Assembly: GCA_038002745.1 (NCBI GenBank)
Contig: JBBODD010000001.1
Coordinates: forward strand, 3,720,001-3,784,000
Direction: 5' to 3'
Length of the DNA: 64,000 bases
Origin: Bacillus sp. FSL H8-0547
GTDB lineage: Bacteria; Bacillota; Bacilli; Bacillales; Bacillaceae
Shown here in pieces: positions 11,944 through 63,055 of the stretch; position 1 is the first letter of the stretch; each line of letters starts with the position of its first letter. Made by a program: the position numbers and the translations under genes. The notes under the pieces are model-generated. The model was given only the letters and a program-made list of their open reading frames with translations, was not told the DNA's origin and made no database searches.

Positions 11944-12375
11944 AGAAAGTGTTAAAGGAGGGGTTAACAGCATTTCGTCATGGTTTAGAACAGGAGAAAG
12001 TGTTCTGAGAAGGAGTTAGCAGCACTAAGTTATGGATTCGGCCAGCAGAAAGTGTTCTTAACTTGAGTTAGCAGCATTTTGTCAAGGCTCTGAACAAGAG
12101 AAAATGTTCTAAACCGGAGTTAGCAACACTTAGTTATGGATTCGGCCAGCAGAAAGTGTTCTAAACCGAAGTTAACAACATTTAGTAATGGATTCGATTG
12201 ACAGAAAATGTTCTTAACTTGAGTTAGCAGCACTTTGTCAGGCATTTGAACAGGAGAAAGTGTTCTAAACCGGAGTTAACAACACTTAGTTATGGATTCG
12301 GCCAGCAGAAAGTGTTCTTAACTTGAGTTAACAACGCTTTGTCAGGAATCCCAACCTCAGAAAGTGTTCTAAACC
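11944..12375. repeat. tandem array 1, 52-bp period, about 8.3 copies
   Basis: Units starting AGAAAGTGTT (or AGAAAATGTT) begin at 11944, 11995, 12047, 12099, 12151, 12203, 12255, 12307 and 12359, so the spacing is 52 bp (51 once). Two unit types nearly alternate: one contains CTAAACCGGAGTTA followed by GGATTCGGCCAGC, the other CTTAACTTGAGTTA followed by TTTGTCAGG and GAACAGG, giving a 104-bp higher order. Each unit has a dyad AACACTT / AAGTGTT around a loop of about 22 bases. The period is not a multiple of three and stops occur in all frames, so it is non-coding. It fills the gap between the ctpA terminator and the wrbA promoter. Confidence 0.92.
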
Positions 12376-12464
12376 ATAGCTCGCCAACTTAACCTTAACA
12401 AACTGAAAAAAACACGTTTTCTCCCTGTATTCATGGGTATATTACCTATAGAAACTGTTAATTG

Positions 12465-12493
12465 TTGACTTTTTTATGCGGTCAGCATATAAT
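12465..12493 (+). promoter_or_regulatory. sigma-A promoter of the wrbA-like/mhqD unit
   Basis: TTGACT at 12465-12470, exactly 17 bp, then a consensus TATAAT at 12488-12493. Confidence 0.85.
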
Positions 12494-12511
12494 TAATTCG
12501 ACTTCGAGATA
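12494..12511. promoter_or_regulatory. MhqR-like operator overlapping the start point
   Basis: Imperfect palindrome TAATTCGAC-TTCGAGATA immediately downstream of the -10 box. Its right half matches the half-site I recall for the MarR-type repressor MhqR (palindrome of TATCTCGAA and TTCGAGATA) exactly, the left half at 6 of 9 positions. The downstream genes fit that regulon. Confidence 0.5.
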
Positions 12512-12556
12512 TATTACTTAAAGATAAAATTCGAACCGAAATGAGGAGAGACCGGA

Positions 12557-13168
12557 ATGTCAAATGTAAAATTAGCCGTCATCTACTACAGTTCTACAGG
12601 TACAAATTACAAGCTTGCTTCATGGGCTGAAGAGGGAGCAAAGGAAGCGGGAGCGGAAGTAAAAGTGTTAAAAGTTCCTGAACTGGCTCCGCAGTCTGCG
12701 ATTGAGTCCAATGAAGCATGGAAAGCGCATCTCGAAGCTACTCAGCATGTACCTGAAGTTACGCTTGACGATCTTGAATGGGCAGATGCCATCATCTTCA
12801 GCGTTCCGACCCGGTTTGGAAACGTACCTGCTCAAATGAAGCAGTTTCTTGATACAACTGGAGGACTATGGTTCCAGGGGAAGCTTGCTAATAAAGTAGT
12901 AAGTGCAATGGCATCGGCAAGTAATCCTCATGGCGGTCAGGAAGCAACCATTTTAAGCCTTTATACAACGATGTACCATTGGGGTGCAATTGTTGCTGCT
13001 CCGGGATACACAGACCAGGTTCTGTTCGAGGCTGGAGGAAATCCGTACGGCACTTCTGTTACAGCAGATCAGGACGGGAATTTAAAAGAGAATGTTGAAC
13101 CGGCCGTTAAGCATCAGGCTAAGCGGACAGTTATGGTAGCTGATTCTATTAAAAAAGGAATGCAATAA
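12557..13168 (+). CDS. WrbA-family NAD(P)H:quinone oxidoreductase
   Basis: A 203-residue flavodoxin-fold protein with the FMN phosphate loop YYSSTGTNYK, the PTRFGNVPAQMKQFLD segment typical of WrbA and the SASNPHGGQEAT block. WrbA enzymes reduce quinones by two electrons using FMN. AGGAGAG precedes the ATG. It precedes mhqD by 61 bases with no terminator between, so the two probably form an operon. In B. subtilis the partner of mhqD is the dioxygenase gene mhqE; a quinone reductase here is functionally coherent with quinone defence. Confidence 0.88.
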   Translation: MSNVKLAVIYYSSTGTNYKLASWAEEGAKEAGAEVKVLKVPELAPQSAIESNEAWKAHLEATQHVPEVTLDDLEWADAIIFSVPTRFGNVPAQMKQFLDTTGGLWFQGKLANKVVSAMASASNPHGGQEATILSLYTTMYHWGAIVAAPGYTDQVLFEAGGNPYGTSVTADQDGNLKENVEPAVKHQAKRTVMVADSIKKGMQ

Positions 13169-13229
13169 TTTTCAAAAATAAGGGGTTTGGCGTGCAGCCA
13201 GACCCTGTCATCATGGAAGGGGACACATC

Positions 13230-13835
13230 ATGAAACACCTTTTTGAAAAAGGAAAGAACCGAAACAGAACTCTTCTGCTGCTTCACGGCACTGGCGGAGA
13301 TGAAAATGATCTTATACCGCTCGCCAAACATATTGATTCTGAAGCAAATATTCTTAGTGTAAGGGGAAACGTGCTCGAGAATGGCATGCCGAGGTTTTTT
13401 AAAAGACTCGCTGAAGGTGTATTTGATGAAGAAGATTTGATTTTCAGAACGAATGAACTGAATGCCTTTTTATCTGAAGCAGCAGAAACATATTCATTTG
13501 ACCGTTCAGAAGTAACAGCAATCGGGTATTCGAATGGGGCAAATATAGCAGGGAGCCTGTTATTCCACTTTGAACGGCCGTTAAAAGCAGCGATCCTTCA
13601 TCATCCGATGGTGCCAAGACGTGGCGTAGCCATTCCTGAACTGAGTGATATGCCAATTTTTATCGGGGCAGGCATGAACGATCCAATCTGCCGTCCGGAA
13701 GAAACAGAGGAGCTCTCGGATCTATTGAAAGGTGCAGGGGGAAATGTCTTGGTGCACTGGGAAAACCACGGCCATCAGCTGACATCCTCTGAGGTGGAAG
13801 CAGCGGCTGCATGGTACAGGGAAAAAATCATATAA
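13230..13835 (+). CDS. mhqD: alpha/beta hydrolase MhqD
   Basis: A 201-residue alpha/beta hydrolase of the phospholipase/carboxylesterase type. The oxyanion HGTGGDEND block, nucleophile elbow GYSNGAN, an acid within AGMNDPI and the late histidine in NHGHQLT form a complete catalytic set. It matches B. subtilis MhqD (YodD), a putative carboxylesterase induced by methylhydroquinone and catechol. GGAAGGGG precedes the ATG. It probably shares the promoter and MhqR-like operator upstream of the WrbA gene, and ends at a strong terminator. Confidence 0.85.
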   Translation: MKHLFEKGKNRNRTLLLLHGTGGDENDLIPLAKHIDSEANILSVRGNVLENGMPRFFKRLAEGVFDEEDLIFRTNELNAFLSEAAETYSFDRSEVTAIGYSNGANIAGSLLFHFERPLKAAILHHPMVPRRGVAIPELSDMPIFIGAGMNDPICRPEETEELSDLLKGAGGNVLVHWENHGHQLTSSEVEAAAAWYREKII

Positions 13836-13873
13836 AAAATGCCTGGATTCAAACAGAATCCAGGCATTTTTTC
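13834..13873. terminator. bidirectional terminator between mhqD and bdh
   Basis: Perfect stem of about 17 bp (core ATGCCTGGATTC / GAATCCAGGCAT) with A-run and T-run flanks; serves both converging units. Confidence 0.92.
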
Positions 13874-13876
13874 TTG

Positions 13877-14653
13877 TTACTGAGCCGTATAACCGCCATC
13901 AAGAAGCACGGCCTGTCCGGTCACGCCTTTCGCTTTATCACTTGCCAGAAAAACGGCATAATCAGCAATTTCATCAACTGAAAGCAGACGTTTTTGAGGA
14001 ACGAGAGGGTAGATGACTTCTTCCAGCACCTTTTCCAGTTCCACGTTTCTCGTTTTGGCAAGATCCTGAAGCTGGTTGCGTACGAGAGGAGTGTCAACAT
14101 ATCCTGGGCAAAGGGCATTGACGGTAATGCCATCTGCAGCTCCTTCAAGCGCTGAAACCTTTGTAAGTCCGATGACTCCGTGTTTGGCTGAGTTGTAGGC
14201 AGCTTTTCCGGCAAATCCGATGACTCCGTTAATGGATGCCATGTTAATGATGCGTCCGTATTTTTGTTTTTTCATATGCGGAAAAACATGCTTTGTAGCA
14301 AGAAACGGTGCCGTCAGCATAATTTTGATCAACAGCTCAAATTTTTCTGTAGGGAATTCCTCAATTGGTGATACATATTGAAGACCTGCATTATTAATAA
14401 GGATGTGAAATGCGCCAAAATGGGCAACGGTGTCATCAATGGCCTTTTTGATTTCGTCTTCGTTTGTCACATCACATTTCAGGCCGAGTGTTTCATAGCC
14501 TTTTTGGGCAAGCTGTTCGGCTGCTTTTTTTACCCCTTCTTCATTTACATCTGTTAAAACAACTTTTGCTCCGTTTTCAGCAAACCGCTCGCCAACCTCA
14601 TAGCCGATTCCCTGTGCAGCTCCTGTAATAAATACAACTTTATCCTTTAACAT
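13877..14653 (-). CDS. bdhA: 3-hydroxybutyrate dehydrogenase
   Basis: A 258-residue short-chain dehydrogenase. Cofactor motif TGAAQGIG, NNAG and the YNSAKHG active-site Tyr/Lys are present, and the sequence (for example LINNAGLQYVSPIEEFP and the C-terminal VTGQAVLLDGGYTAQ) is that of D-3-hydroxybutyrate dehydrogenases such as YxjF. It oxidises 3-hydroxybutyrate to acetoacetate with NAD. The ATG at 14653 has AAAGGAG at good spacing; a TTG two codons upstream is too close. It follows the GntP-type permease gene by 21 bases, so the two are one operon. Confidence 0.88.
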   Translation of the reverse strand: MLKDKVVFITGAAQGIGYEVGERFAENGAKVVLTDVNEEGVKKAAEQLAQKGYETLGLKCDVTNEDEIKKAIDDTVAHFGAFHILINNAGLQYVSPIEEFPTEKFELLIKIMLTAPFLATKHVFPHMKKQKYGRIINMASINGVIGFAGKAAYNSAKHGVIGLTKVSALEGAADGITVNALCPGYVDTPLVRNQLQDLAKTRNVELEKVLEEVIYPLVPQKRLLSVDEIADYAVFLASDKAKGVTGQAVLLDGGYTAQ

Positions 14654-14674
14654 AGTCAACCGCTCCTTTATTCT

Positions 14675-15961
14675 TTAATATAATCCCATGGATGCAAGTG
14701 CAATTGCTGCAATGACAGCTATGATCGGAATGATTAGTCCTACTACGGCAACATCCAGGTAGGTTTGTTTGTGTTTGAGTCCTGTAACCGCAAGGAGTGT
14801 AAGCAGAGCTCCATTATGCGGAAGGATTGAGGCGCCGGAAGCAACTGCTGCAACCCTGTGAAAAGCTTCAGGGGAAATACCTGTGCTTTTGGCAAGCTCC
14901 ATATATTGACTTCCCAGAGCCTCAAGAGCAATTCCCATTCCTCCGGAGGCTGAACCGGTTATACTGGCCAAAAGCTGAACGGCAATTGCCTCTGAAATAA
15001 GCGGATTCCCTTTCACTCCAAGAATTAGATCAGTAAGCTGTTCAAAGCTCGGTACAGCTGTCACTACTGCTCCGAAACCAACTGCAGCGCTTGTGTTGAC
15101 AATGGCCATCACAGAACCTGCAGCTCCGCCGTTAATTGATTTGATAAACATCTTAAATTTAGTAATGGAAAGAAGCATGATGGATAAAATCCCAATGACA
15201 AGTGCAAGCAGAATATCCAATTTAAACACATTCAGAACGACTACAACAACAATCAGGGGGATAATCGAAAGATAGGCGTTTGGAAGCTGTGACGGATCAA
15301 TGTCCTTTACTTTGTCGCCGCCATTGGGCTCTGTAAATTTCTCACCTTTGTTTTGGAGCTTTTTGCCTCGCCAGGCTAAATAGAAATAGCCTCCCGCAGC
15401 CATGATGAGACCGGAAACAATCCCCATAATCGGACCTGCGGTCGGAGTTGTGCCGAAATAATCGGTTGGAATGATATTTTGAATCTGCGGTGTTCCCGGC
15501 AGGGCAGTCATCGTAAAGGTAAATGCACCTAACACAATCGTTGCAGGTATCAGGTTTCTGGACACATCTGCAGAACGGAAAAGGGCGATTGCAAGCGGGT
15601 AGATGGCAAAAACGACGACAAACAGACTGACACCGCCGTATGTAAGAACGGCTGCTCCGACTAAAACGCCTAACACAGCTCGTTTCTTTCCGATGAACTG
15701 CGTGATTTTAAAGGCGACAGACTGCGCCATGCCGGTTTCTTCCATCAGTTTTCCGAATATAGCCCCAAGCAGGAAAATAGGAAACCATTTAAAGGTAAAA
15801 TCGACAAACCCTTTCATATACGTTTCCGTATAGGCAGGAAGCAGGTCAACTCCTTCAAGGCCGGCTACAACTAAAGCAATAAGCGGCGCAATCCAGATGA
15901 TGGACCAGCCAAGATAGGCAAGCGCCATCAGCAAAACCAATCCGATGATGATGTTTATCAT
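14675..15961 (-). CDS. GntP-family permease, probable hydroxybutyrate transporter
   Basis: A 428-residue membrane protein with about 12 helices and the GntP-family blocks GSASGGMGIAL and AVASGASILPHNGA. It resembles B. subtilis YxjC, which stands beside the hydroxybutyrate dehydrogenase gene yxjF, so 3-hydroxybutyrate or acetoacetate uptake is the likely job. AAGGAGC precedes the ATG. It is followed directly by the dehydrogenase gene. CoA-transferase genes (scoAB) that accompany this pair in B. subtilis are absent here. Confidence 0.85.
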   Translation of the reverse strand: MINIIIGLVLLMALAYLGWSIIWIAPLIALVVAGLEGVDLLPAYTETYMKGFVDFTFKWFPIFLLGAIFGKLMEETGMAQSVAFKITQFIGKKRAVLGVLVGAAVLTYGGVSLFVVVFAIYPLAIALFRSADVSRNLIPATIVLGAFTFTMTALPGTPQIQNIIPTDYFGTTPTAGPIMGIVSGLIMAAGGYFYLAWRGKKLQNKGEKFTEPNGGDKVKDIDPSQLPNAYLSIIPLIVVVVVLNVFKLDILLALVIGILSIMLLSITKFKMFIKSINGGAAGSVMAIVNTSAAVGFGAVVTAVPSFEQLTDLILGVKGNPLISEAIAVQLLASITGSASGGMGIALEALGSQYMELAKSTGISPEAFHRVAAVASGASILPHNGALLTLLAVTGLKHKQTYLDVAVVGLIIPIIAVIAAIALASMGLY

Positions 15962-16023
15962 GCTGCATTAGCTCCTTAAGTAGATTTATCTGACCTTACT
16001 TTCCCCAAAAGAAGCTGAAAAAA

Positions 16024-16056
16024 ACGAAAAACCGGCAAGTTTTTATAACCGCCGGT
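16024..16056 (-). terminator. intrinsic terminator after yodC
   Basis: Read on the minus strand: stem ACCGGC / GCCGGT with a 14-base loop followed by TTTTTCGTTTTTTTC. Confidence 0.7.
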
Positions 16057-16063
16057 CTTTTCC

Positions 16064-16687
16064 TTATAAAAATGTGCTTAGTTCATCAATGCTGATTCGC
16101 GAGCTTTGGTGAGCTGGCTTAGCTGCTTTTCCGATTGTAATCAGCATAACAGGAACGTAACGATCCTCAATTTTAAATGTTTCTGAAAGCTGAGATGCAT
16201 TAAAGCCTCCGATAGCACAAGTGTCATACCCTTTTGCTTTAGCCGTCAGCATGAGCTGCATGGCTGCAAGAGACGCGTTGCTGAACGCTGCATCGCGTGC
16301 GAATACAGGATTTTGATATGCTCCGTGAATCTGCCCTGCCAATGTATCTTTAATTTCTTCTTTCATGAAACCTGCTGATACAAGAGGATTATATACTTTA
16401 TCTGTGTTTTTGTTTGCTTCAAGGTCGCCGAGAATGGCAACTACAGCAGACGCTTCTGTGATCTGGCTTTGATTGTATGCAATAGGAAGAAGTCTTTCTT
16501 TCGATTCATCGCTGTGGAAAACCATGAACTTCCAGTGCTGCAGGTTCCATGCAGATGGAGCTTTTCCCGTCAGTTCCAGAATTTCTTTTAACTCGTCCTT
16601 GCTGATTTTTGCGGATGGATCATATTTGCGCACAGAACTGCGTTCAGACATAATAGATAAGATGCTTTCAGTTGTTGCTGCTGTCAT
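16064..16687 (-). CDS. yodC: NAD(P)H nitroreductase YodC
   Basis: A 207-residue FMN-dependent nitroreductase family protein. The RSSVRKYD motif near the N terminus binds the FMN phosphate, and APSAWNLQHW and GGFN segments are typical. B. subtilis YodC is induced by quinones and diamide and is repressed by YodB. The ATG at 16687 is preceded by GGAGG with 8 bases spacing. It is divergent from yodB with 147 bases between, the arrangement known from B. subtilis. Confidence 0.9.
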   Translation of the reverse strand: MTAATTESILSIMSERSSVRKYDPSAKISKDELKEILELTGKAPSAWNLQHWKFMVFHSDESKERLLPIAYNQSQITEASAVVAILGDLEANKNTDKVYNPLVSAGFMKEEIKDTLAGQIHGAYQNPVFARDAAFSNASLAAMQLMLTAKAKGYDTCAIGGFNASQLSETFKIEDRYVPVMLITIGKAAKPAHQSSRISIDELSTFL

Positions 16688-16737
16688 GTGAAAAACCTCC
16701 AAAGTTGAATAAGTATTTTAAATAAGGTATAATATAC

Positions 16738-16768
16738 AAAAAGTTACAAACTAACTTTTAGTAAGTGT
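16738..16768. promoter_or_regulatory. candidate YodB operator in the yodC-yodB gap
   Basis: Around TTACAAACTAACTTTTAGTAAG (16745-16766) there is an imperfect palindrome, including ACTAA-3-TTAGT. It overlaps the probable yodC promoter (minus strand TTTGTAAC then TATATTATAC). Similar TTAC...GTAA boxes are bound by HxlR-type redox repressors. I have not matched it base by base to the YodB consensus. Confidence 0.4.
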
Positions 16769-16834
16769 TGATAGTAAAATCATAATATGGTGATGAATAG
16801 ATGTCAAGAAATAAGCTGGTAAAGGAGATTCGCT

Positions 16835-17158
16835 ATGGAATCTAACTTGTGCCCAAAAATGGAAAAAGCTTTCGGTTTTCTAGGCAAGCGGTGGACAGGC
16901 TTAATTGTCCACGTGCTGCTTGACGGACCTAAACGGTTTAAAGATCTGACAGATACTATTCCTAGTATTAGTCAAAAAATGCTTGTTGAAAGGCTGAAAG
17001 AACTGGAATCGGCTGGCATTGTCGAGAGAGTTGTCATCCCCGATACTCCTGTAAAAGTGACATATAAGCTCACAGAAATGGGCTATTCTCTTGAAAAGGT
17101 TATGGATGAGGTAAAAGAATGGGCGGATAAATACTGTCTTGGGGAGGAAATGAAATGA
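16835..17158 (+). CDS. yodB: HxlR/MarR-type thiol-sensing repressor YodB
   Basis: A 107-residue winged-helix repressor. It closely matches B. subtilis YodB, including the sensor Cys6 in LCPKM and a second cysteine at exactly residue 101, near the C terminus. B. subtilis YodB also has Cys108; the protein here ends at 107 and lacks it. Oxidation or alkylation of Cys6 relieves repression of yodC and azoreductase genes in B. subtilis. GTAAAGGAG precedes the ATG. The following SDR gene overlaps its end by four bases (ATGA). Confidence 0.93.
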   Translation: MESNLCPKMEKAFGFLGKRWTGLIVHVLLDGPKRFKDLTDTIPSISQKMLVERLKELESAGIVERVVIPDTPVKVTYKLTEMGYSLEKVMDEVKEWADKYCLGEEMK

Positions 17159-17883
17159 GCCGAACTGTTATCATTACCGGTGGAGCAAATGGAATTGGCG
17201 AGGAGCTTGTCAGGCAATATGCAGAAAAAGGAGACCGCGTTTTTCTGGCAGATTTTGACGCAGCAAAAGGGAAAGCCATTTCCGACAGCTCTGATAACAT
17301 TCACTTTGTTCAAACAGATGTCAGAAAGATTGAAGATATTCAGATACTGGTGAAAACGGCTGTCCGTGAAACCGGCAAAATCGATATCCTTATAAACAAT
17401 GCCGGTGTCTCCCGTTTTAAGCCATTTTACGAATTAACCATTGAAGACTGGGATGATGTGCTGAATACAAATTTAAGAAGTGTTTTTCTCGCTTCTCAGG
17501 AAGCTGCCAGAGTGATGAAAAAAAATGAAGCTGGCGGTTTTATTGTGAACATAGCATCGACAAGAGCGCAAATGTCTGAGCCGAATTCAGAGGCATATGC
17601 AGCGACAAAAGGAGGCATCGTGGCCATTACTCATGCGCTTGCCGCCTCGCTTGGCGATGACCGTATCAAAGTAAACTGCATCTCACCCGGCTGGATTGAG
17701 ACAAAGGAATACGATCAGCTGAGATCTGTTGACCACGAGCAGCATTTATCTAAAAGGGTAGGAAAGCCTGCGGATATTGCGAAAGCCTGCTTTTATCTGA
17801 CAGACCCCGAAAATGATTTCGTCACAGGAGCAAACCTGGTGGTCGACGGGGGCATGACCCGAAAAATGATCTATGAGCATTAA
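17155..17883 (+). CDS. short-chain dehydrogenase/reductase
   Basis: A 242-residue SDR with the complete classical motifs: TGGANGIG cofactor loop, NNAG, catalytic Tyr and Lys in YAATKGG, and the PGWIET segment after strand 6. The substrate is not predictable. GGGGAGGAAATG spans its start, which overlaps yodB by four bases, so it is co-transcribed with the redox repressor and may handle a carbonyl product of quinone or electrophile stress. That link is inferred from operon structure only. Confidence 0.88.
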   Translation: MSRTVIITGGANGIGEELVRQYAEKGDRVFLADFDAAKGKAISDSSDNIHFVQTDVRKIEDIQILVKTAVRETGKIDILINNAGVSRFKPFYELTIEDWDDVLNTNLRSVFLASQEAARVMKKNEAGGFIVNIASTRAQMSEPNSEAYAATKGGIVAITHALAASLGDDRIKVNCISPGWIETKEYDQLRSVDHEQHLSKRVGKPADIAKACFYLTDPENDFVTGANLVVDGGMTRKMIYEH

Positions 17884-17885
17884 GG

Positions 17886-17909
17886 GACTGTGTTAAACAG
17901 TCTTTTTTT
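17886..17909 (+). terminator. intrinsic terminator after the yodB operon
   Basis: Stem GACTGT / ACAGTC with a 5-base loop and a run of seven T. Confidence 0.85.
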
Positions 17910-17944
17910 ATGTTCTTTTATAGAGAGTGAAATTGAAGGACTCT

Positions 17945-17969
17945 GTTTGCAATCAAGCAGGGCGGGTAA
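17945..17969 (+). promoter_or_regulatory. candidate sigma-B promoter
   Basis: GTTTGC, 13-bp spacer, GGGTAA, close to the sigma-B consensus GTTTAA-N13/14-GGGTAT, 36 bases before the start of the YdaT-like gene, whose B. subtilis homologue is a general-stress gene. Confidence 0.5.
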
Positions 17970-18004
17970 TAGATAAGAAAAAATAACAGAAAGGAATGAA
18001 GAAT

Positions 18005-18385
18005 ATGCCATGGACAAAAGAGGATTATCCTCAATCAATGAAAAATTTACCCGCAAAGACGCGTGATAAAGCAATTGAAATTGGAAATGCACTGGTAGAT
18101 GACGGGTACGATGAGGGCCGCGCCATACCGATTGCCGTGTCGCAGGCTGAAAAATGGGCTGACGGCAGCAGTTCGGATAACAGCAATTCAAAAGAAGAAT
18201 ATCATGTTGTTTCAGACGAACAAGGATGGATGGTTAAAAAAGAAGGCAGCAAGAGGGCAAGCTACAGATTTGACACCAAGCAGGAAGCTGTTGAAAAAGG
18301 CAGGGAGCTTGTTAAGAACAACGACTGTTCATTGGTTGTACACAAAATGGACGGCTCTGTTGAAAACACCGTAAACAGCAGATGA
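18005..18385 (+). CDS. YdaT-like general stress protein with DUF2188 tail
   Basis: A 126-residue protein. Residues 1-50 (MPWTKEDYPQSMKNL start, YDEGRAIPIA motif) are the YdaT/ChaB-like helical module. Residues 60-120 match the DUF2188 type (YHVV...GWMVKKEG...ASYRFDTKQEA). I start at the second ATG, where AAAGGA is 9-10 bases away and the protein begins MPW as in relatives. A candidate sigma-B promoter lies upstream. The molecular function is unknown. Confidence 0.75.
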   Translation: MPWTKEDYPQSMKNLPAKTRDKAIEIGNALVDDGYDEGRAIPIAVSQAEKWADGSSSDNSNSKEEYHVVSDEQGWMVKKEGSKRASYRFDTKQEAVEKGRELVKNNDCSLVVHKMDGSVENTVNSR

Positions 18386-18474
18386 TTATTTTCGTTTTTT
18401 TAAGACATGCGCCCACTCCAAAACCTTTTAGGTGAATACCCTTATAAGGTAAGCAATAAAGAGGAGGGGAATGC

Positions 18475-18714: not shown

Positions 18715-18734
18715 CGAAATCGATTCTGCAGATA

Positions 18735-18774
18735 AATAATGGACCAGAGAGCCTGTATTCTCTGGTCCATTATT
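18735..18774. terminator. bidirectional terminator
   Basis: Stem AATAATGGACCAGAGA / TCTCTGGTCCATTATT, perfect, between two converging genes. Confidence 0.85.
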
Positions 18775-29638: not shown

Positions 29639-29676
29639 GAAATCCGTTCCTTTTAAAAGAGGGAGCGGATTTTTTG
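29639..29676 (+). terminator. intrinsic terminator after cwlS
   Basis: Stem AAATCCGTTCC / GGGAGCGGATTT (near perfect) followed by a T-run. Confidence 0.85.
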
Positions 29677-29734
29677 TTTTTATTATTGTGATGTTTACAA
29701 AAGATGTTATATATATGCATTTCAGCAATAAATT

Positions 29735-30030
29735 ATGACCCTTCAGTATGGGGGAGAGTGTGTGAAGGGTCATAAGCAGGCGTGTTATGACCTTTCAGTA
29801 TGGGGGAGAGCGAGTGAAGGGTCATAAGCAGCCGTGATATGACCCTTCAACATGAAAGAGAGTGAGTGCAAGGTCATAAATAGCCGTGATATGACCCTTT
29901 AGCATGAGGGAGAGCGAGTGAAGGGTCATAAGCAGCCGTGATATGACCCTTCAATATAGAAGAGAGGAGTGAAAGGTCATAAGCAGTCGATACATAACCC
30001 TCCAGCATAAAAGAAGCCATACAAAAGGTT
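29735..30030. repeat. tandem array 2, 52-bp period, five units plus a remnant
   Basis: Units starting ATGACC begin at 29735, 29787, 29839, 29891 and 29943, exactly 52 bp apart; a decayed sixth starts ATAACCC at 29994. Each unit is ATGACCCTTCA, a 17-base purine-rich loop (GTATGGGGGAGAGTGTG type), TGAAGGGTCAT and a 13-base linker (AAGCAGCCGTGAT type). The 11-bp arms pair perfectly in unit 1 and with wobbles or one to two mismatches in the others. It is the main content of the gene-free stretch 29677-30159. Its sequence is unrelated to array 1. Confidence 0.93.
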
Positions 30031-44940: not shown

Positions 44941-45226
44941 AGAAAAGCGGAGCCGACTGTTCAGGCCTGACAGTCAGATAAGAAATCACCGAAAAAGTCC
45001 GGTCTTGACTTTTTCGGTGATTTTGTTCTGGCAGAGGAGTTGGGCGATGGAACTGGACACTAGAAAAGTGGAATCAGCCGTTTAGCTCCGATAGGCAGAT
45101 AAGAAATCTCCGGAAAAGTCCGGTTTTGACTTTTTCGGGGATTTTGTTCTGACAGAGGAGTTGGCTGATGGAACTGGACACCAGAAAAGCGGAATCGCCT
45201 GTTCAGCACCATGCTGAACCCTGAAA
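44941..45226 (+). repeat. 121-bp dispersed repeat, about 2.4 tandem copies
   Basis: Units starting GAAAAGCGG or GAAAAGTGG begin at 44942, 45063 and 45184 (period 121). Each full unit contains a long hairpin (for example ATCACCGAAAAAGTC / GACTTTTTCGGTGAT at 44985-45021) with a T-run, then GGAACTGGACAC. It belongs to the group of GAAAAGCGGA...GGAGCTGGACA intergenic repeats I remember as common in Bacillaceae. The same family appears reversed at 63100-63481. Confidence 0.88.
44985..45026 (+). terminator. repeat-borne terminator after odhB
   Basis: ATCACCGAAAAAGTC / GACTTTTTCGGTGAT, 7-base loop, then TTTTGTT. It is the first clear terminator downstream of odhAB and lies within the 121-bp repeat. 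Confidence 0.75.
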
Positions 45227-54919: not shown

Positions 54920-54924
54920 GAAGC

Positions 54925-56528: not shown

Positions 56529-56620
56529 TTCATCAGCCTCCTAAATATTTGTGGTGAAAACCTATGTAGAAAATCGTGCTGAAGACCCGCCAACAAGATG
56601 CAGGTCATTGCCTGCTGTTG

Positions 56621-56634
56621 TGTAAGCGGTTACA
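56621..56634. promoter_or_regulatory. cre site at the dhaS start point
   Basis: TGTAAGCGGTTACA, a perfect 14-bp palindrome matching the CcpA cre consensus, immediately downstream of the dhaS -10 box. Confidence 0.85.
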
Positions 56635-56640
56635 AATAGA

Positions 56641-56669
56641 ATAATATATCAAAAATTCAAAATTTACAA
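56641..56669 (-). promoter_or_regulatory. sigma-A promoter of dhaS
   Basis: On the minus strand TTGTAA, 17-bp spacer, TATTAT; the predicted start overlaps the cre palindrome. Confidence 0.65.
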
Positions 56670-56722
56670 TAAATAAGGGTTTTGTATTCGAATTTTTTTG
56701 AGTTTGAAAGTTATAAATAAAT

Positions 56723-56760
56723 AGAAGAACCGGCATCATATCAAAATTGCCGGTTCTTCT
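56723..56760. terminator. hairpin terminator at the end of the small acidic gene
   Basis: Perfect stem AGAAGAACCGGCA / TGCCGGTTCTTCT with a 12-base loop. On the minus strand it is followed by ATTTATTTATAA, and the last codons of the gene lie in its first arm. Confidence 0.75.
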
Positions 56761-56944
56761 TTCTGAGAAATAAATAGAGTGGAAAGAGGGTTGAAAACTG
56801 TTCATATGATTCGTACTCAAACGTTTCAAAGAAGCCTATGAGCTCATCTTCTTCAGCCTCTTTGAGTATCCCGGATTCTTCAAGAGGGTATCTGTCTCTA
56901 AGATAGAGATCCCACACACCGTATTCAGCAAAAACATCTTCCAT
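56741..56944 (-). CDS. small acidic protein, 67 aa
   Basis: A 67-residue acidic protein opening MEDVFAEYGVWDLYL, with many Glu and aromatic residues, no membrane helix and a basic end (RKKNRQF). I do not recognise a family. The ATG at 56944 follows AAGGAGG. The last codons lie inside the stem of the terminator. It lies between dhaS and glcU with its own signals. Confidence 0.65.
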   Translation of the reverse strand: MEDVFAEYGVWDLYLRDRYPLEESGILKEAEEDELIGFFETFEYESYEQFSTLFPLYLFLRKKNRQF

Positions 56945-57124
56945 ATATGACCCTCCTTTTTCTATCCAGTATAAAAAAGCGGCGCTATTTATAAACATGC
57001 TGTTTCAATCTTTCTTATTAGTGGAATGAACTAAGGCAGGCTGTGTTATTTTCTGCATAAGGGGAAATAATACTTTCAAATGTCCAAATAGCTGCACGAC
57101 TACATAGTAGAAAGGGATATCATC

Positions 57125-57979
57125 ATGATTGGAATTTTGCTTGCTTTAATTCCCGCCGTTGCGTGGGGAAGTCTTGTGCTTGTTAGTGTAAAACTTGGCG
57201 GTAATGCATACAGCCAAACACTTGGTATTACAATAGGAGCGTTTTTGTTTTCGGTTGTTATGTTCTTTTTTTCAAATCCTGATCTCACTCCGGTTGTATG
57301 GTCAATCGGAATTATCTCGGGTATTTTCTGGACGGTCGGGCAGCTGAATCAGCTTGCCAGTGTCAAGCATATCGGCGTATCCAAAACCGTGCCGATCTCA
57401 ACAGGCATGCAGCTTATGGGGACGACACTGTTCGGCGTTCTGCTTTTTAAAGAATGGGATACAAAAATGACGGTTATCCTTGGAAGCCTAGCCATCCTCC
57501 TCATCATTACAGGAGTAGTGTTTACATCCATTGGCCAGAAGGATGAAGAAGGAGCCGGAAAGAGCCTGAAGCGTGGACTCTTCATTCTGTTTATTTCCTC
57601 AATCGGGTACATCGGCTACGTTATTATTATCCGCTACTTTGAGATTGACGGCTGGGCAGCCATTTTGCCGCAGGCGATTGGGATGGTGCTTGCTGCTATT
57701 ATTCTTACCGCGAGACATAAGCCTTTTGATAAATATGCACTGCGGAACATTCTGACAGGATTAATGTGGGCGGCAGGAAACCTTGGGCTGCTTCTCTCCC
57801 TTCCGAAAATCGGAGTTGCGACAAGCTTTTCTTTATCCCAGACAGGTATCATCATTTCCACACTGGGCGGAATCTTTCTGCTGGGTGAAAAAAAGACAAA
57901 AAAACAGATTGTGCTCGTTATTATTGGCTGCTTGCTGATTATCGGAGGCGGAGTGCTGCTTGGCTATACAAAAAGGTAA
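57125..57979 (+). CDS. glcU: glucose uptake protein GlcU
   Basis: A 284-residue ten-helix protein of the GRP/GlcU sugar transporter family (IPAVAWGSLVLVSVKLGG start, GIFWTVGQLNQL, PISTGMQLMGTTLFGV). GlcU imports glucose by proton symport. AAAGGG precedes the ATG. The glucose dehydrogenase gene follows 15 bases later, the same operon as in B. subtilis, where it is expressed in the forespore by sigma-G. CATAGTA at 57103-57109 fits a sigma-G -10, but I see no good -35. Confidence 0.93.
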   Translation: MIGILLALIPAVAWGSLVLVSVKLGGNAYSQTLGITIGAFLFSVVMFFFSNPDLTPVVWSIGIISGIFWTVGQLNQLASVKHIGVSKTVPISTGMQLMGTTLFGVLLFKEWDTKMTVILGSLAILLIITGVVFTSIGQKDEEGAGKSLKRGLFILFISSIGYIGYVIIIRYFEIDGWAAILPQAIGMVLAAIILTARHKPFDKYALRNILTGLMWAAGNLGLLLSLPKIGVATSFSLSQTGIIISTLGGIFLLGEKKTKKQIVLVIIGCLLIIGGGVLLGYTKR

Positions 57980-57994
57980 ATGGAGGAATGCTGA

Positions 57995-58780
<786 letters not shown>

Positions 58781-58782
58781 AG

Positions 58783-58830
58783 GAGGGGTCAGTCCCGCTG
58801 TGCATTAACGCACAGCGGGACTGACCCCTC
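58783..58830. repeat. perfect 21-bp inverted repeat after gdh
   Basis: Arms GAGGGGTCAGTCCCGCTGTG(C) at 58783-58803 and its complement at 58810-58830 with a 6-base ATTAAC loop. There is no T-run after it. Similar GGGGTCAGTCCC hairpins are, from memory, dispersed in Bacillus genomes. It may end transcription or be a mobile palindrome. Confidence 0.85.
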
Positions 58831-58916
58831 AGCACGTTTATTCTTTTCAAAATGGTGGAAAAGGATATAATTGTGGAATACATACAGAAAAATAGTCTTC
58901 TAGGGGGAAGAGGCAA

Positions 58917-59714
58917 GTGAAGATGAGTTCATCGATTTTAGAGGATATGAATGTTTATTCTCTGCTGGACCGGATAGGGGAAGGGCTTATTTTTGCAGAT
59001 GATGAGTACCGCATCATCTGGATGAATCATGCTGCAAAAGAGATTCTGTCAAAAGTGGGGCCGCTTGCAGGAATTACTGATCCGGAAGCATTTATCGGGT
59101 TTGATATCCGGCGCTTTCACGGGAAAAAACAAAATGACATCCTAAAAAACGGTCCGTTTCCGCACAGTGCCCAGATCAGGCTGTTTAACCGGTTCACAGC
59201 TAAAATCGTTGTGGACAAACTGAGCAATCTTCAAGGGGAACAGACAGGATTTGTCCTGACGTGGCGTGATGTAACAGAATATGAAGATGTGATAGAAGAG
59301 GGAAAAGCGCTGCTTGAGGAAATGTATACGCCAATCATCGGCACCGCACTCGACTCTGCTCTTTTGATCGCTCTGACAGGAACCCTGACAGAAGAAAGAA
59401 TGGAAAAAATGAAAGAGAAGATCCTGAAGGAAGCCGCCGAGCGGAGAGCTGAATATATGATTTTTGACTTTACAGGCATTAGCGAGACATTTGATGAAAC
59501 AATTGCTTTTCATCTTAATCAAATCGCAGAAGGCCTGCGGCTTATGGGGACCGTATCCATCTTTGCAGGGATGAACCCAAAGCTTGTGCAGCATATCACT
59601 CATCAGGGCTATATTTTGAATGTAAAAACGTTTCAGTCCTTTAAGCAGGGGATTTTTTATATCTGGAAAGAAAAAGGGTACGCACTTCAAAAAATCACGA
59701 GCCAGCCTTCTTGA
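58917..59714 (+). CDS. PAS-STAS regulatory protein
   Basis: A 265-residue protein. Residues 10-125 form a PAS domain (LLDRIGEGLIFADDEYRIIWM, then FVLTWRDVTEYE) and residues 135-250 a STAS domain like RsbR/RsbS (IGTALDSALLIALTGTLTEER, MIFDFTGISETFDETIAFHL). The usual phospho-Ser/Thr region reads SETFDETIA. It is probably a stressosome-like sensor or another partner-switch protein. Start: GTG 58917 or ATG 58923, both near GGGGGAAGAGG. Confidence 0.82.
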   Translation: MKMSSSILEDMNVYSLLDRIGEGLIFADDEYRIIWMNHAAKEILSKVGPLAGITDPEAFIGFDIRRFHGKKQNDILKNGPFPHSAQIRLFNRFTAKIVVDKLSNLQGEQTGFVLTWRDVTEYEDVIEEGKALLEEMYTPIIGTALDSALLIALTGTLTEERMEKMKEKILKEAAERRAEYMIFDFTGISETFDETIAFHLNQIAEGLRLMGTVSIFAGMNPKLVQHITHQGYILNVKTFQSFKQGIFYIWKEKGYALQKITSQPS

Positions 59715-59820
59715 TGGGGCTGGTTTTCTCATTGTCTCCCACAAGTATTTTTGTTCATCCTGCATAATCAGTTCTCAATTGCAGAAAATAAAGGGAATAA
59801 AAATTTGGGAGGCATGCTGA

Positions 59821-60312
59821 ATGAATAAGTTTCTAATGACAGGAACAGCCATTTTTTTCTCTGTTTTGATTGCCGCCGGCTGTGGAATGGATAATAACGC
59901 ACGTGAAAACGACAACATCATGAACAATGAGCTTAAGAATGTCACTTATGATGAACAAACGAATGAAAACCGCGATAACCGCATGAATGTAGCTGACGAT
60001 GCTGCAAAAAAAGTGGCAGATTTAGAAGAAATCAAATATGCGAATGTCATTGTTCTTGATAATACGGCTTATGCAGCAGTTATGCTTGAGGGAAATCCTA
60101 AAGGCAAACTGTCTGATGAATTAAAGAACAGAGTAGCTGATCAGGTACGATCAACAGACCGCAATTTGGACAATGTGTTTGTTTCGGAAAATCCTGACTT
60201 TTTTGACCGTGTAAAAGACTACGGCGATAAAATCCGAAACGGCGAACCGGTTTCAGGACTGGCAGATGAGTTCGGTGAAATGGTGAAGCGTATGTTTCCC
60301 CAGTCGAAATAA
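59821..60312 (+). CDS. YhcN/YlaJ-family sporulation lipoprotein
   Basis: A 163-residue lipoprotein with signal peptide and lipobox IAAGC (Cys21), an Asn/Asp/Glu-rich linker, and a YhcN/YlaJ domain (about 60-160; AAKKVADLEEIKYANVIVLDNTAYAAVML). Relatives are forespore or cortex-associated lipoproteins. GGGAGG precedes the ATG. It is single and followed by a terminator. A coat/cortex role is inferred from family. Confidence 0.85.
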   Translation: MNKFLMTGTAIFFSVLIAAGCGMDNNARENDNIMNNELKNVTYDEQTNENRDNRMNVADDAAKKVADLEEIKYANVIVLDNTAYAAVMLEGNPKGKLSDELKNRVADQVRSTDRNLDNVFVSENPDFFDRVKDYGDKIRNGEPVSGLADEFGEMVKRMFPQSK

Positions 60313-60323
60313 CTAATTGTACG

Positions 60324-60353
60324 GGCCGCAGCCAGTCTGCGGTCTATTTTTTT
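60324..60353 (+). terminator. intrinsic terminator after the YhcN-like gene
   Basis: Stem GGCCGCAG / CTGCGGTC (one G-U pair), loop of 5, then TATTTTTTT. Confidence 0.78.
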
Positions 60354-60424
60354 GATAAAGGTTTTTATATCAATGAAACAGGGGATATAAAGAAAGCCAT
60401 TATTCTGTTGTAGGGGGAGTTTTA

Positions 60425-61864
60425 TTGTCAAGGTTTTCGTTTGCAGGCTATAAAAAGAAACGCCTGTTTGTCATCCTGCTAATTTTTATTATTTTAACAG
60501 GTACTGTTATGTATCAAAGCTATAAGCCTCTTCCCGAAGGTCTTTCATATGAAGGGGAAGTACGCAAGGTGGAGGATGTCGATTTTTTATATGACCTGAC
60601 GTATCAGAAAGAAAACAGGGTCAAATCAGATCGGATGATATTTGATGCTGTGCTTAAAGCGATTGATGAAGCTGAAGAATTTGTTGTGATTGACTTATTT
60701 TTGTTTAACGGCTATTACAACAAGGGAGAATCCTATCCCGATATCAGTGCTCAGCTGACGGAGGCGCTGCTTCAAAAAAAGAAAGAAAACCCTGACATGC
60801 CGATTGTCTTTATTACAGACGAAATCAATACCTCATACGGGTCACACGAATCAAAGGAGCTTGAAGCTTTTAAGGATGCAGGCATAGATGTCGTTCTGTC
60901 GGATATGGAGCCTCTGCGAGATTCTAATCCGCTGTATTCCAGTGTCTGGAGAACGTTTTTTCAGTGGTTCGGCCAGTCAGGAAAAGGCTGGGTGGCCAAT
61001 CCGTTTGGGGATACTGCCCCTGGTATGACGGTAAGGTCTTATTTAAAGCTTTTTAATGTAAAGGCAAATCACAGAAAAGCAGTCGCTACGGAGAAGACAG
61101 CCATTGTCTCATCCGCTAATCCTCACGATGCAAGCGGGTTTCATTCCAATACTGCTTTTCAGGTAAGCGGAAATGTCATTGCAGACGTGCTCGAATCCGA
61201 ACAGGCTGTATCGAACTACTCCGGCGGACCCAAACTTCCTGAGTACACTGAAACGGAAAATGAGAAAGGGAATATCGGCGTGCAGGTGCTGACTGAAGGG
61301 AAAATTTACGAGCATTTGCTGTCGTCGATCAGGGCTGCAGAAAAACAGGATGTCATCTGGATGGGAATGTTTTATTTAGCTGACAGAAAAGTGATCAACT
61401 CACTCGTTGACGCATCTAACCGCGGTGTTGAGGTGAATATGATTCTTGATCCGAATCAAAATGCTTTCGGCCAGGAGAAAATAGGCCTGCCTAACCGTCC
61501 TGTTGCTGAAGAATTGATGGAAGATACGAAAAAGAAAGCGAAAATCAGATGGTATAACACAACAAATGAACAGTATCATCCGAAGCTTCTTTATATTAAA
61601 GGGAAAAATGAATCCACGATCATCAGCGGTTCGGCGAATTTCACAAAACGGAATCTTGATGACCTTAATCTTGAGAACGACTTGAAAATCACCGCTCCTC
61701 AGGATGAGGACGTTATGAAAGAAGTCGAAGCGTATTTCACAAAACTCTGGACGAATGACGGAGCTGAATATACCCTGAATGTTGAAAAATACAGAGATGA
61801 CATGCCGGTATTCAAAAGGGGCATATATGCTCTGCAGAAATTTTTCAGGTTTACAACCTTCTAA
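60425..61864 (+). CDS. membrane-anchored phospholipase D-like protein
   Basis: A 479-residue protein with one N-terminal membrane helix (13-30) and two PLD-type HxK motifs: NHRKAVATE in the middle and YHPKLLYIKG near residue 385, each followed by an SAN segment (SSANPHD, SGSANFT). It probably acts outside the membrane as a cardiolipin-synthase-like or phospholipase enzyme, but it lacks the two transmembrane helices of ClsA. The second HKD has no Asp at the usual place, so activity is not assured. Start TTG with GGGGGAG. Confidence 0.8.
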   Translation: MSRFSFAGYKKKRLFVILLIFIILTGTVMYQSYKPLPEGLSYEGEVRKVEDVDFLYDLTYQKENRVKSDRMIFDAVLKAIDEAEEFVVIDLFLFNGYYNKGESYPDISAQLTEALLQKKKENPDMPIVFITDEINTSYGSHESKELEAFKDAGIDVVLSDMEPLRDSNPLYSSVWRTFFQWFGQSGKGWVANPFGDTAPGMTVRSYLKLFNVKANHRKAVATEKTAIVSSANPHDASGFHSNTAFQVSGNVIADVLESEQAVSNYSGGPKLPEYTETENEKGNIGVQVLTEGKIYEHLLSSIRAAEKQDVIWMGMFYLADRKVINSLVDASNRGVEVNMILDPNQNAFGQEKIGLPNRPVAEELMEDTKKKAKIRWYNTTNEQYHPKLLYIKGKNESTIISGSANFTKRNLDDLNLENDLKITAPQDEDVMKEVEAYFTKLWTNDGAEYTLNVEKYRDDMPVFKRGIYALQKFFRFTTF

Positions 61865-61896
61865 ACTCCGGGATTTGCCTCGGAGTTTTTTTTTTG
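61864..61896 (+). terminator. intrinsic terminator
   Basis: Stem AACTCCG / CGGAGTT with a long T-run. Confidence 0.85.
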
Positions 61897-61966
61897 CGAA
61901 AAAAATAATTATTTTAAAGGGAAAGTGAGGGGGTGAATCTAATACAAAGATTAGAGGTGATAATGG

Positions 61967-62827
61967 ATGATGCTTAAAGAATACAAAGACCGCCGCACGT
62001 ACATTGAAAAATCAGAACCGCTGCTTATGAAGCAGGAAGCGGAAAATAATTTGGCGCTGGGACTCCTGTCTGTTTTTAAAAAGACGGTTCCGGCTTCAGA
62101 CGTATATACCGCTCTGATGGAAACAGAAGGGGCACCTGCGGCAGCGCTGCTTATGACGCCCCCTCACAATTTAATTCTTACATATAATAACGAACTAATC
62201 AGTGAAACGTTGATTGCTGAAATGGTCAGACAGCTGATATCAGCAGGGGTTTCTGTGCCGGGTGCTGTCGGTGAGAGGTACTGGACAGAAAGATTTGCCA
62301 AAGAGTGGGCCGAACAGGCGGGGATTAGAGCCGACATTGTGATGGAGCAAAAAATCTATCAGCTTCATGAGGTGCAGCCTGTAGCTGTCAGTGAAGGGAG
62401 CTTTCAAAAAGCAAAACTTGAACACCTGCCGCTTTTAACAGAGTGGATGGCGGACTTTATGACGTTTACAAATGAGCCCCCGATCACGACTCTACAGGCA
62501 GCAGAAAGAATGAAGAAATTTCTCGCTGAGGACTCTATTTACATCTGGTCGGTTGACGGAATACCTGTTTCGATGGCAAAAAAATCGCGGTCAACTCAAA
62601 ACGGCATAACGGTATCCCTTGTATACACTCCGGAAAAATTCAGGGGAAGAGGATATGCGAGCAGCTGCGTGTCCGCACTCAGCAGTGAGCTCTTGAAGGA
62701 TTATTCATTCTGCACTCTATATACAGACTTATCAAATCCTACATCAAACAGCATCTATCAGAAAATAGGCTACAAGCCGATCCAGGATTCTGTGATGATT
62801 TCATTTTCAAATCAAGGAGCAGTTTAA
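61967..62827 (+). CDS. GNAT-family N-acetyltransferase
   Basis: A 286-residue protein whose C-terminal half (about 145-280) is a GNAT domain with the acetyl-CoA loop YTPEKFRGRGYASS and NSIYQKIGY. The N-terminal half is a degenerate GNAT-like fold common in these 280-residue Bacillus proteins. Target unknown. TTAGAGGTG lies 7 bases before the ATG. A terminator follows. Confidence 0.83.
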   Translation: MMLKEYKDRRTYIEKSEPLLMKQEAENNLALGLLSVFKKTVPASDVYTALMETEGAPAAALLMTPPHNLILTYNNELISETLIAEMVRQLISAGVSVPGAVGERYWTERFAKEWAEQAGIRADIVMEQKIYQLHEVQPVAVSEGSFQKAKLEHLPLLTEWMADFMTFTNEPPITTLQAAERMKKFLAEDSIYIWSVDGIPVSMAKKSRSTQNGITVSLVYTPEKFRGRGYASSCVSALSSELLKDYSFCTLYTDLSNPTSNSIYQKIGYKPIQDSVMISFSNQGAV

Positions 62828-62849
62828 ATGTTTCCGGTTCACTTTTATA

Positions 62850-62889
62850 CTCAAGACTGCTTCTAAACAGCAGTCTTGGGTTTTTTTTT
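62850..62889 (+). terminator. intrinsic terminator
   Basis: Stem CAAGACTGCT / AGCAGTCTTG, loop of 7, then GG and a run of nine T. Confidence 0.9.
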
Positions 62890-62934
62890 GTTGGTGTGGA
62901 GCGATGCCCAGTGTATCCCCGGATGCCAGCAGTA

Positions 62935-63055
62935 AAATGGATTCCTATAAGTTGTTGTTGCAGAAATAGAGGGTACCATTTTAGCGAAATGCATCCCTGT
63001 AAATTGCTAACCGCTAAATATAGGGTAACATTCTGGGAAAAATGCTTCCCCATAC
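62935..63055. repeat. tandem array 3, 52-53-bp period, degenerate
   Basis: Units starting AAATGG/AAATGC begin at 62935, 62987 and 63040 (52 and 53 bp). Unit 1 has AAATGG(TT)CC-like arms: AAATGGATTCCTATA with TAGAGGGTACCATTTT; unit 2 AAATGCATCCCTGTA with TATAGGGTAACATT. Each has a dyad round an AT-rich loop of about 17 bases; the third is cut short. It has the same period as arrays 1 and 2 but another sequence. Confidence 0.75.

What the first reader, a model, noticed from the sequence alone, without database searches (positions are those of the whole stretch)
11944..63055. Three unrelated arrays share one architecture: 52-bp period plus internal dyad
Sequences differ but the period (52) and layout (two arms, loop of 17-22, short linker) are the same. 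Fifty-two base pairs equal five turns of B-DNA at 10.4 bp, so identical sites would face the same side of the helix. This suggests a class of elements, perhaps bound cooperatively by a dimeric protein, copied by a common mechanism, or producing phased hairpins. This may be an undescribed repeat class.
Basis: partly seen in the sequence, partly recalled or inferred. Interest (0 to 1): 0.82.

Follow-up and report, generated by a model that had tools for sequence, protein, structure and literature searches.

The report
Known 52-base satellites: tandem inverted-repeat sites
The three 52-base arrays belong to a repeat class already published for Bacillus; closer study suggests that each repeat is a symmetric docking site for an unknown DNA-binding protein, lined up on one face of the double helix in gaps between genes.

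Summary
Arrays 1 and 2 are 52-bp tandem arrays with a dyad; array 3 is a 2-3-copy remnant whose M. indicus orthologue has 8 copies. The genome, a Metabacillus close to M. indicus, is rich in such arrays: 26 of 46 tandem arrays called in 858 kb have period 52 or 53. The class is not undescribed: Subirana and Messeguer (2021) catalogued it and list B. indicus with one family seen here.

What I add: (i) the three arrays are not unrelated; held out, each matches one diverged ~15-bp half-site (array 1 weakly, array 3 through its orthologue), laid out 15-(4-6)-15 bp plus a 16-18-bp spacer; (ii) half-sites are conserved while centre and spacer vary, within arrays and between species; (iii) half-site centres lie 20 and 32 bp apart, about 2 and 3 turns; (iv) arm changes show no RNA-pairing signature; (v) arrays are intergenic and nearer to gene 3' than 5' ends; (vi) two families that do not match this half-site have period 53; (vii) published units from 13 Bacillus species carry dyads beyond chance.

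Best reading: phased sites for an unidentified dimeric DNA-binding protein. No protein was found; the function is inferred.

The parts
11942..12375 (.). Array 1, 52-bp tandem units (about 8), D-type half-sites GTTAAGAACACTTTC / GTTAGCAACACTTAG, intergenic between an S41 peptidase gene and a wrbA-like gene
   Evidence: held-out half-site match p=0.015 and, with families held out, p=0.045 (weak)
12046..12080 (.). one 35-bp inverted-repeat site of array 1 (others found: 11994-12028, 12098-12132, 12150-12184, 12254-12288)
   Evidence: model R1; four units of this array were in the model's training set
11860..11886 (+). hairpin followed by T residues behind the upstream gene (terminator-like)
   Evidence: read directly; the scan tool found no terminator here
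12465..12493 (+). promoter-like TTGACT-17-TATAAT between array 1 and the next gene
   Evidence: 1 found, 1.5 expected in shuffles; 11 of 12 matches
29734..30004 (.). Array 2, about five 52-bp units, A-type half-sites CTTATGACCCTTCA, intergenic between an NlpC/P60 gene and a sodC-like gene
   Evidence: half-site match with the whole A family held out p=0.005
29815..29849 (.). one 35-bp inverted-repeat site of array 2 (others: 29763-29797, 29867-29901, 29919-29953, 29970-30004)
   Evidence: model R1; three units of this array were in the training set
29639..29673 (+). terminator-like hairpin 61 bp before array 2
62915..63058 (.). Array 3, eroded 52-bp array of 2-3 units; the M. indicus orthologue has 8 copies
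   Evidence: the orthologue matches the half-site held out, p=0.005
62967..63001 (.). best-preserved 35-bp site of array 3
   Evidence: R1 with filters off: 7.2 bits, E=0.3 for 401 bases, second of two hits (weak); no hit with default filters in the window
62849..62881 (+). terminator-like hairpin before array 3

Best explanation
Each 52-bp unit is a binding site for a sequence-specific DNA-binding protein that acts as a dimer. The unit is two ~15-bp half-sites in inverted orientation around a variable 4-6-bp centre, followed by a variable 16-18-bp spacer. Half-site centres fall 20 and 32 bp apart (about 2 and 3 turns), and units repeat every 52 bp (5 turns of 10.4), so every half-site faces the same side and a row of dimers can assemble side by side. 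Arrays grow and shrink by whole units and survive in gaps between genes, mostly behind gene ends. Shown: period, spacing, a shared half-site across the main families, the conservation pattern, position, unit-wise copy change at two loci. Inferred: the protein, its dimeric state, cooperative assembly, and the cellular role (local nucleoid structure or insulation behind genes).
For: Dyad-motif search over 35 array consensus units gives 7.85 bits against 4.1-4.3 in 10 of 10 shuffled sets (best of 24 restarts for the data, of 6 per null). With whole families held out, 12 of 19 A, B, C and G arrays reach p<=0.05 (11 at the dyad seen by eye), as do window arrays 1 and 2 and the array 3 orthologue (uncorrected). 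Within arrays, identity is 0.83 at 8-17 bp from the axis against 0.73 in the spacer and 0.72 in the centre; core above spacer in 24 of 28 arrays, p=1.9e-6; for A-C arrays alone 13 of 15, centre 0.67. Between species the consensus differs in 12 of 150 half-site columns against 27 of 111 others, p=3.6e-4; without the one E array, 9 of 120 against 24 of 88, p=1.9e-4. Symmetry on 58 sites: 62.4% paired cells, 35-48% when slid, 56.2% when partners are dealt anew. Spacing departs by more than 1 bp in 1 of 235 cases. No RNA signature: G-T 69, A-C 57, p=0.33. All 246 R1 hits lie in or at the edge of arrays. Families E and F have period 53 in 10 of 10 arrays, the others 52 in 24 of 25. Published units of other species: summed stem score 176 against 110 +/- 4.2.
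Against: E and F arrays match the half-site in only 1 of 10 cases, D in 2 of 5 and C in 3 of 8, so one protein cannot be assumed for all. Halves are only partly complementary, and two of five measures (pairs changed on both sides, further pair types) lie below their shuffles. Adjacent arrays do not keep the 52-bp register: 41 bp between axes in L013 and 30 in L022 (read). One spacing of 66 breaks phase. No solitary high-scoring site was seen, unusual for a regulator's site; R1 would miss weak ones and finds no hit at E<=1 in seven of the 26 arrays of its sample.
Confidence: 0.6

Rival explanations
1. Neutral satellites: slippage or unequal exchange amplifies chance seeds in gaps that tolerate them, and 52 bp reflects a property of the amplification machinery, not a bound protein.
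For: Copy number differs between the two species by about whole units (array 3: about 313 bp = 6 x 52; the locus at OWNCON 126 kb: 260 bp = 5 x 52; my subtraction), and two own arrays are absent in M. indicus. Arrays sit in gaps, none in a called gene. Copies within an own array are more alike than own and M. indicus copies at 5 of 5 loci (by 0.01-0.12), and at 4 of 5 for the M. indicus arrays, as exchange within arrays would give.
Against: Half-site columns are conserved about three-fold better than centre and spacer between species and better within arrays in 24 of 28; a neutral process has no reason to spare two symmetric blocks. Families that lack the common half-site have another period.
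Confidence: 0.2
2. The arrays act as RNA: transcribed rows of hairpins or small RNAs (one proposal of Subirana and Messeguer).
For: PMC8161180 and PMC8625621 report RNA-seq reads from 52-nt repeats of B. coagulans. A unit of array 2 folds well as RNA on both strands (z -3.7 and -5.5).
Against: Units of arrays 1 and 3 do not fold significantly better than shuffles (z 0.5, 0.2, -1.4, -0.6). G-T changes are not favoured over A-C, and compensated doubles are 9 against 255 unpaired changes (A-C families alone 6 against 189). In B-type sites the inner parts of the halves are not complementary in consensus. 22 of 27 3' flanks have a terminator-like hairpin before the array, against 188 of 335 array-free 3' flanks (shorter stretch searched, so not a strict control).
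Confidence: 0.1
3. The sites are recombinase or transposase substrates (lox/dif-like sites, or abutted insertion-sequence ends) and the arrays are products of that enzyme.
For: Two arms around a short centre resemble such sites (recalled); 8 of 27 published units have significant dyads with arms of 8-13 around 5-7 bp.
Against: The own genome has only 3 PF00589 matches, in frames of 299, 321 and 193 aa (the first two XerC/XerD-like by size, recalled), fewer than any of the four congeners without arrays of this type (7-19). Y1 transposases are absent from own and M. idriensis. The two empty sites show no clean target duplication.
Confidence: 0.07

Closest known systems
52-nt tandem repeats (satellites) of Bacillus, Subirana and Messeguer 2021 (PMC8161180; parts 1-4 of 5 and the table section read) and 2020 (J Bacteriol, not held)
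   Same: 51-53 nt period, non-coding, several sequence families per genome, species-restricted, short characteristic sequences shared by the repeats of a species and often present with their reverse in one repeat; B. indicus listed with 90 tandem repeats on average, 96.6% of 52 nt, and family 7_52_18 that equals family B here
   Different: They find no obvious function and stress that sequence is not conserved; their list of characteristic signals does not include indicus. The 15-5-15+17 layout, the leave-family-out test of a common half-site, the constraint map, the 3'-end bias and the period-53 families were not in the parts read.
REP/BIME elements of enterobacteria (recalled)
   Same: inverted units with fixed spacers in extragenic clusters near gene 3' ends
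   Different: no Y1 (RAYT-type) transposase in the own or M. idriensis genome; strict 52-bp head-to-tail period
Plasmid centromeres and iterons such as F sopC, 43-bp tandem repeats with inverted repeats (recalled)
   Same: works like: tandem copies of an inverted-repeat site for a dimeric protein
   Different: here 26 chromosomal arrays in a fifth of the genome, of different sequence; no cognate protein known
CRISPR arrays (recalled)
   Same: regular repetition
   Different: the spacers are themselves repeated within an array and the whole 52-bp unit is tandem; cas genes were not searched for

Membership tests
52-nt Bacillus satellites (PMC8161180) | repeat length 51-53 nt | tested here: met
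   234 of 235 spacings
52-nt Bacillus satellites (PMC8161180) | at least four copies | tested here: met
   28 of 34 tracked arrays have four or more units, window arrays 1 and 2 included; window array 3 does not, its M. indicus orthologue does
52-nt Bacillus satellites (PMC8161180) | non-coding | tested here: met
   0 of 27 arrays overlap a called gene (simple in-house gene calls)
52-nt Bacillus satellites (PMC8161180) | several families of constant length and different sequence in one genome | tested here: met
   families A-G, grouped by eye
52-nt Bacillus satellites (PMC8161180) | restricted to the species or close relatives | tested here: met
   R1 sites at E<=0.01 in 3 of 80 genomes of the family; 1 of 159 of the order at E<=1e-4, a limit that M. 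idriensis itself would fail
52-nt Bacillus satellites (PMC8161180) | short sequences and their reverse in the same repeat | tested here: met
   (11 of 27 singly)
REP/BIME with RAYT | cognate Y1 transposase in the genome | tested here: not met
   PF01797 absent in G000 and G002; 1 match in G003; 2 in G004, which lacks the arrays
Tyrosine-recombinase site arrays | dedicated recombinase beyond XerC/XerD in site-bearing genomes | tested here: inconclusive
   PF00589 matches: own 3, M. indicus 7, M. idriensis 8, the four others 7, 7, 12 and 19
RNA hairpin element | compensatory pairing in the arms | tested here: not met
   9 compensated doubles, G-T 69 versus A-C 57
Rfam family | match at gathering score | tested here: not met
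   0 matches in the window
Protein-bound tandem site (sopC/iteron-like) | cognate DNA-binding protein | not testable with these tools
   needs affinity capture or ChIP

The most novel reading that the evidence does not exclude
The 52-nt satellites of Bacilli are the docking arrays of an undiscovered, fast-evolving group of sequence-specific DNA-binding proteins. Each protein class sets its own period (52 or 53 bp) and half-site, and coats short chromosomal stretches behind genes as one-sided filaments, a bacterial analogue of satellite-bound chromatin.
Probability: 0.3. Interest if true: 0.85.

Novelty: new member of a known kind. Interest (0 to 1): 0.5.

Why it matters
Why satellites of many sequences in many Bacilli keep exactly 52 nt has been open since they were catalogued. 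Reducing the unit to a symmetric 15-5-15 site with a free spacer, and showing that the half-sites are the constrained part, turns that question into a direct experiment: a defined bait, defined mutations (half-site versus spacer), and a defined phase test (shift by 5 bp versus 10 bp).

Tried and rejected
Phased RNA hairpins: not supported. REP/RAYT system: rejected. Dedicated tyrosine recombinase: not supported. Known RNA family: none in the window. Mobile source: array 2 has no match in the plasmid and phage collections at E<=1e-5. Register kept between adjacent arrays: tested and not kept. One half-site for every array: tested and not upheld for families E and F. The first pattern for solitary sites was mis-spaced by me (centre too long by 2), so one search is not a valid count; the model search replaced it. 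A first small sample suggested that M. idriensis lacks arrays (one 2.2-copy 52-bp array in 369,359 bases of five congeners); the model search and four targeted stretches corrected this. Among 80 named S41-peptidase loci (1.65 Mb) two hold a 52-bp array: M. indicus and a Bacillaceae MAG. Sampling other families of the order gave one more (L221 in G089) among 16 genomes given to (5 of which gave under 7 kb), none in ten more G089 stretches and none in ten more genomes: too few to judge.

Weak points of my own scripts: OC_52900 and OC_134097 consensus units were built without tracking indels and are smeared; the axis set is doubtful for E and F arrays and was 3 bp off for L013 D-type sites, yet these rows stayed; one search repeats the counts for A-C arrays and for the four 52-bp orthologue pairs. 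In one search one of the 12 significant arrays (L020_12794) scored at a place other than its visible dyad. Classes were drawn by eye with the periods in view, and arrays of one class may share descent, so the p of 6e-8 overstates the evidence. The 27 published units are not all independent (several per species).

Dropped rows: the 53-bp arrays except L009 and all but four copies per array were left out of the 92 listed sites, and 58 of these 92 went into alignment A1; one of six orthologue pairs (OC_52900) had one tracked copy on one side and was left out.
Full report
WHAT WAS CHECKED. Tandem Repeats Finder calls array 1 (11980-12375, 7.6 copies) and array 2 (29734-29986, 4.9 copies) at period 52. 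Autocorrelation over periods 15-299 gives only 52 and its multiples 104 and 156 at these two places, and 121 at two others. The window lies at 3720001-3784000 of a 4.11-Mb contig of a 4.23-Mb genome.

EXCESS OF THE PERIOD. In 858,546 bases (41 stretches including the window) 46 non-redundant arrays were called; 20 have period 52 and 6 have 53, seven belong to a 121-123-bp family, and no other period occurs more than twice. One order-3 Markov resample of all stretches gave no array. Successive units are 52 (176), 53 (52), 51 (6) or 66 (1) bp apart: 235 spacings in 34 arrays (26 arrays of the sample and 8 of the adjoining 180 kb). In 260 kb of M. indicus 8 arrays have these periods.

ALREADY IN PRINT. 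Subirana and Messeguer 2021 (PMC8161180; parts 1-4 of 5 and the table section read) report 1886 of 4029 tandem repeats in 176 Bacillus genomes with a 51-53-nt repeat, constant length and variable sequence, and several families per species. They note that all 52-nt repeats of a species show a few characteristic short sequences, often together with their reverse in the same repeat, and they propose a nucleoid protein or small RNAs. Table 1 lists B. indicus with 90 tandem repeats on average, 96.6% of 52 nt, and a consensus that is family B of this report. Their transcription paper (PMC8625621, two of three parts read) finds RNA-seq reads from such repeats in B. coagulans. Of their 2019 paper (PMC6749651) I saw the listing and two passages. 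The 2020 paper was not held. Searches with 52 nucleotides, 52-bp, 52 nt and 52 bp, together with tandem repeats and Bacillus or bacteria, gave nothing further on the class.

THE UNIT TAKEN APART. A dyad-motif search over 35 array consensus units (34 own, plus the M. indicus orthologue of array 3) found one half-site recurring at a fixed distance from a common axis: 7.85 bits against 4.1-4.3 in 10 shuffled sets. In 18 arrays used to build a matrix its consensus is GATTAGTACCCTCAA, with a 5-bp centre in all 18. Scoring with whole families held out is the stricter test. Reaching p<=0.05 (uncorrected) were 4 of 5 A arrays, 4 of 5 B, 3 of 8 C, 1 of 1 G (array 3 orthologue, p=0.005), 2 of 5 D (window array 1, p=0.045), 1 of 6 E, 0 of 4 F, and the one unclassified array. 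Window array 2 scores p=0.005. So the three arrays called unrelated share a half-site, array 1 on weak evidence, while the 53-bp families E and F do not demonstrably do so. In these tests the best centre is 6 bp for array 2, 5 for the array 3 orthologue and 4 for array 1.

CONSTRAINT. Aligned on the axis, unit copies are conserved in two blocks, about -17..-3 and +4..+17, and vary in the centre and the spacer: identity 0.83 at 8-17 bp from the axis, 0.72 in the centre, 0.73 in the spacer; core above spacer in 24 of 28 arrays; p=1.9e-6. Variation among copies was not used to find the axis. For A-C arrays alone: 0.84, 0.67 and 0.75; 13 of 15 arrays; p=0.0015. Between own and M. indicus orthologues (5 of 6 pairs usable) consensus differences fall in 12 of 150 half-site columns, 21 of 86 spacer columns and 6 of 25 centre columns (half-site against rest p=3.6e-4); without the E pair 9 of 120 against 24 of 88 (p=1.9e-4). 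Symmetry on 58 sites is 62.4% paired cells against 35-48% when one side is slid by 1-3 columns; when partners are dealt anew among the sites it is still 56.2%, so most pairing comes from the common half-site and little from site-by-site matching.

DNA RATHER THAN RNA. Among arm positions paired in consensus, unit copies show 1627 unchanged pairs, 9 compensated doubles, 69 G-T, 57 A-C and 129 other mismatches; G-T against A-C p=0.33. A-C families alone: 1267, 6, 47, 43, 99. Of one unit folded from each window array, only that of array 2 beats shuffles.

GEOMETRY. With half-sites at +/-3..17, centres are 20 bp apart inside a site and 32 bp to the next: 1.9 and 3.1 turns at 10.4 bp per turn, and 5 turns per unit. 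This is inference from spacing. Against it: 66 bp once, and no register between adjacent arrays (41 and 30 bp between axes). Families E and F have period 53 in 10 of 10 arrays, the others 52 in 24 of 25 (p=6e-8); classes were drawn by eye with periods in view and members may share descent, so this is suggestive only.

PLACE. None of 27 arrays overlaps a called gene. In 25 merged regions (22 with both neighbours) the median distance to a neighbouring 3' end is 87 bp (27 flanks) against 211 bp to a 5' end (17 flanks), p=2e-4. Convergent gaps hold 9 of 22 regions against 38 of 381 array-free gaps of 100 bp or more, p=3e-4; divergent gaps are not avoided (4 of 22 against 84 of 381, p=0.8). A hairpin plus T run lies between gene and array in 22 of 27 3' flanks, against 188 of 335 array-free 3' flanks searched over about 97 bp. 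Gene calls and terminator rule are my own.

DISTRIBUTION AND TURNOVER. A model of the site (R1) finds 246 matches at E<=1 in the 858 kb, both strands counted; on reading the list each lies in or at the edge of an array. Seven of the sample's 26 TRF arrays have no hit there (L013:2134, L020:16842, L026, L047, L048, L056:10907, L060:4037). At E<=0.01 it rings in 3 of 80 genomes of the family; at E<=1e-4 in 1 of 159 of the order, a limit that M. idriensis would have failed. Four targeted M. idriensis stretches each hold a 52-bp array of B type. Own and M. indicus differ by about 6 units at array 3 and 5 at another locus; two own arrays are absent in M. indicus, where short unlike sequence stands instead.

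GENERALITY. I scored dyads in the 27 consensus units printed for 13 species in PMC8161180: summed stem score 176 against 110 +/- 4.2 (maximum 122 of 300 shuffles); 13 of 27 reach p<=0.05, 14 do not. In 8 of these 13 the centre is 5-7 bp. This extends the authors' remark on reverse sequences and fits one design with species-specific half-sites.

CONCLUSION. Ordinary in class, new in anatomy. The most likely working is a row of inverted-repeat docking sites for an unidentified dimeric DNA-binding protein (0.6). The protein, its cooperativity and the purpose remain to be shown.

Noticed in passing
window 44941-45207 and 63077-63481; also L008, L023, L025, L107, L149, L153, L159, L228: A second intergenic tandem repeat of 121-128 bp with conserved sequence and a GGAAAAGTCC-type hairpin, in Metabacillus species and apparently Planomicrobium. 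The copy at 44941-45207 is missing at the orthologous place in M. indicus.
   Followed up: partly
L022:7675-7741: The only spacing in 235 that breaks phase: 66 instead of 52 bp, by a partial repetition of the linker text.
   Followed up: no
G000:C2:67162-67352: The 112-kb second contig (plasmid-like by size) also bears sites at 52-bp steps.
   Followed up: no
G000:C1:4099172-4099702: The second-best PF00589 match lies in a 321-aa frame in own and M. indicus but in a 305-aa frame in the five other congeners.
   Followed up: no
   Followed up: no
L221:6590-6903; L139:5674-6002: 52-bp arrays in other Bacillales with dyads of other dimensions: AGATTGTCAT-13-ATGACAATCT, and short arms TTCATAG/CTATGAA around 3 bp (by eye).
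   Followed up: partly
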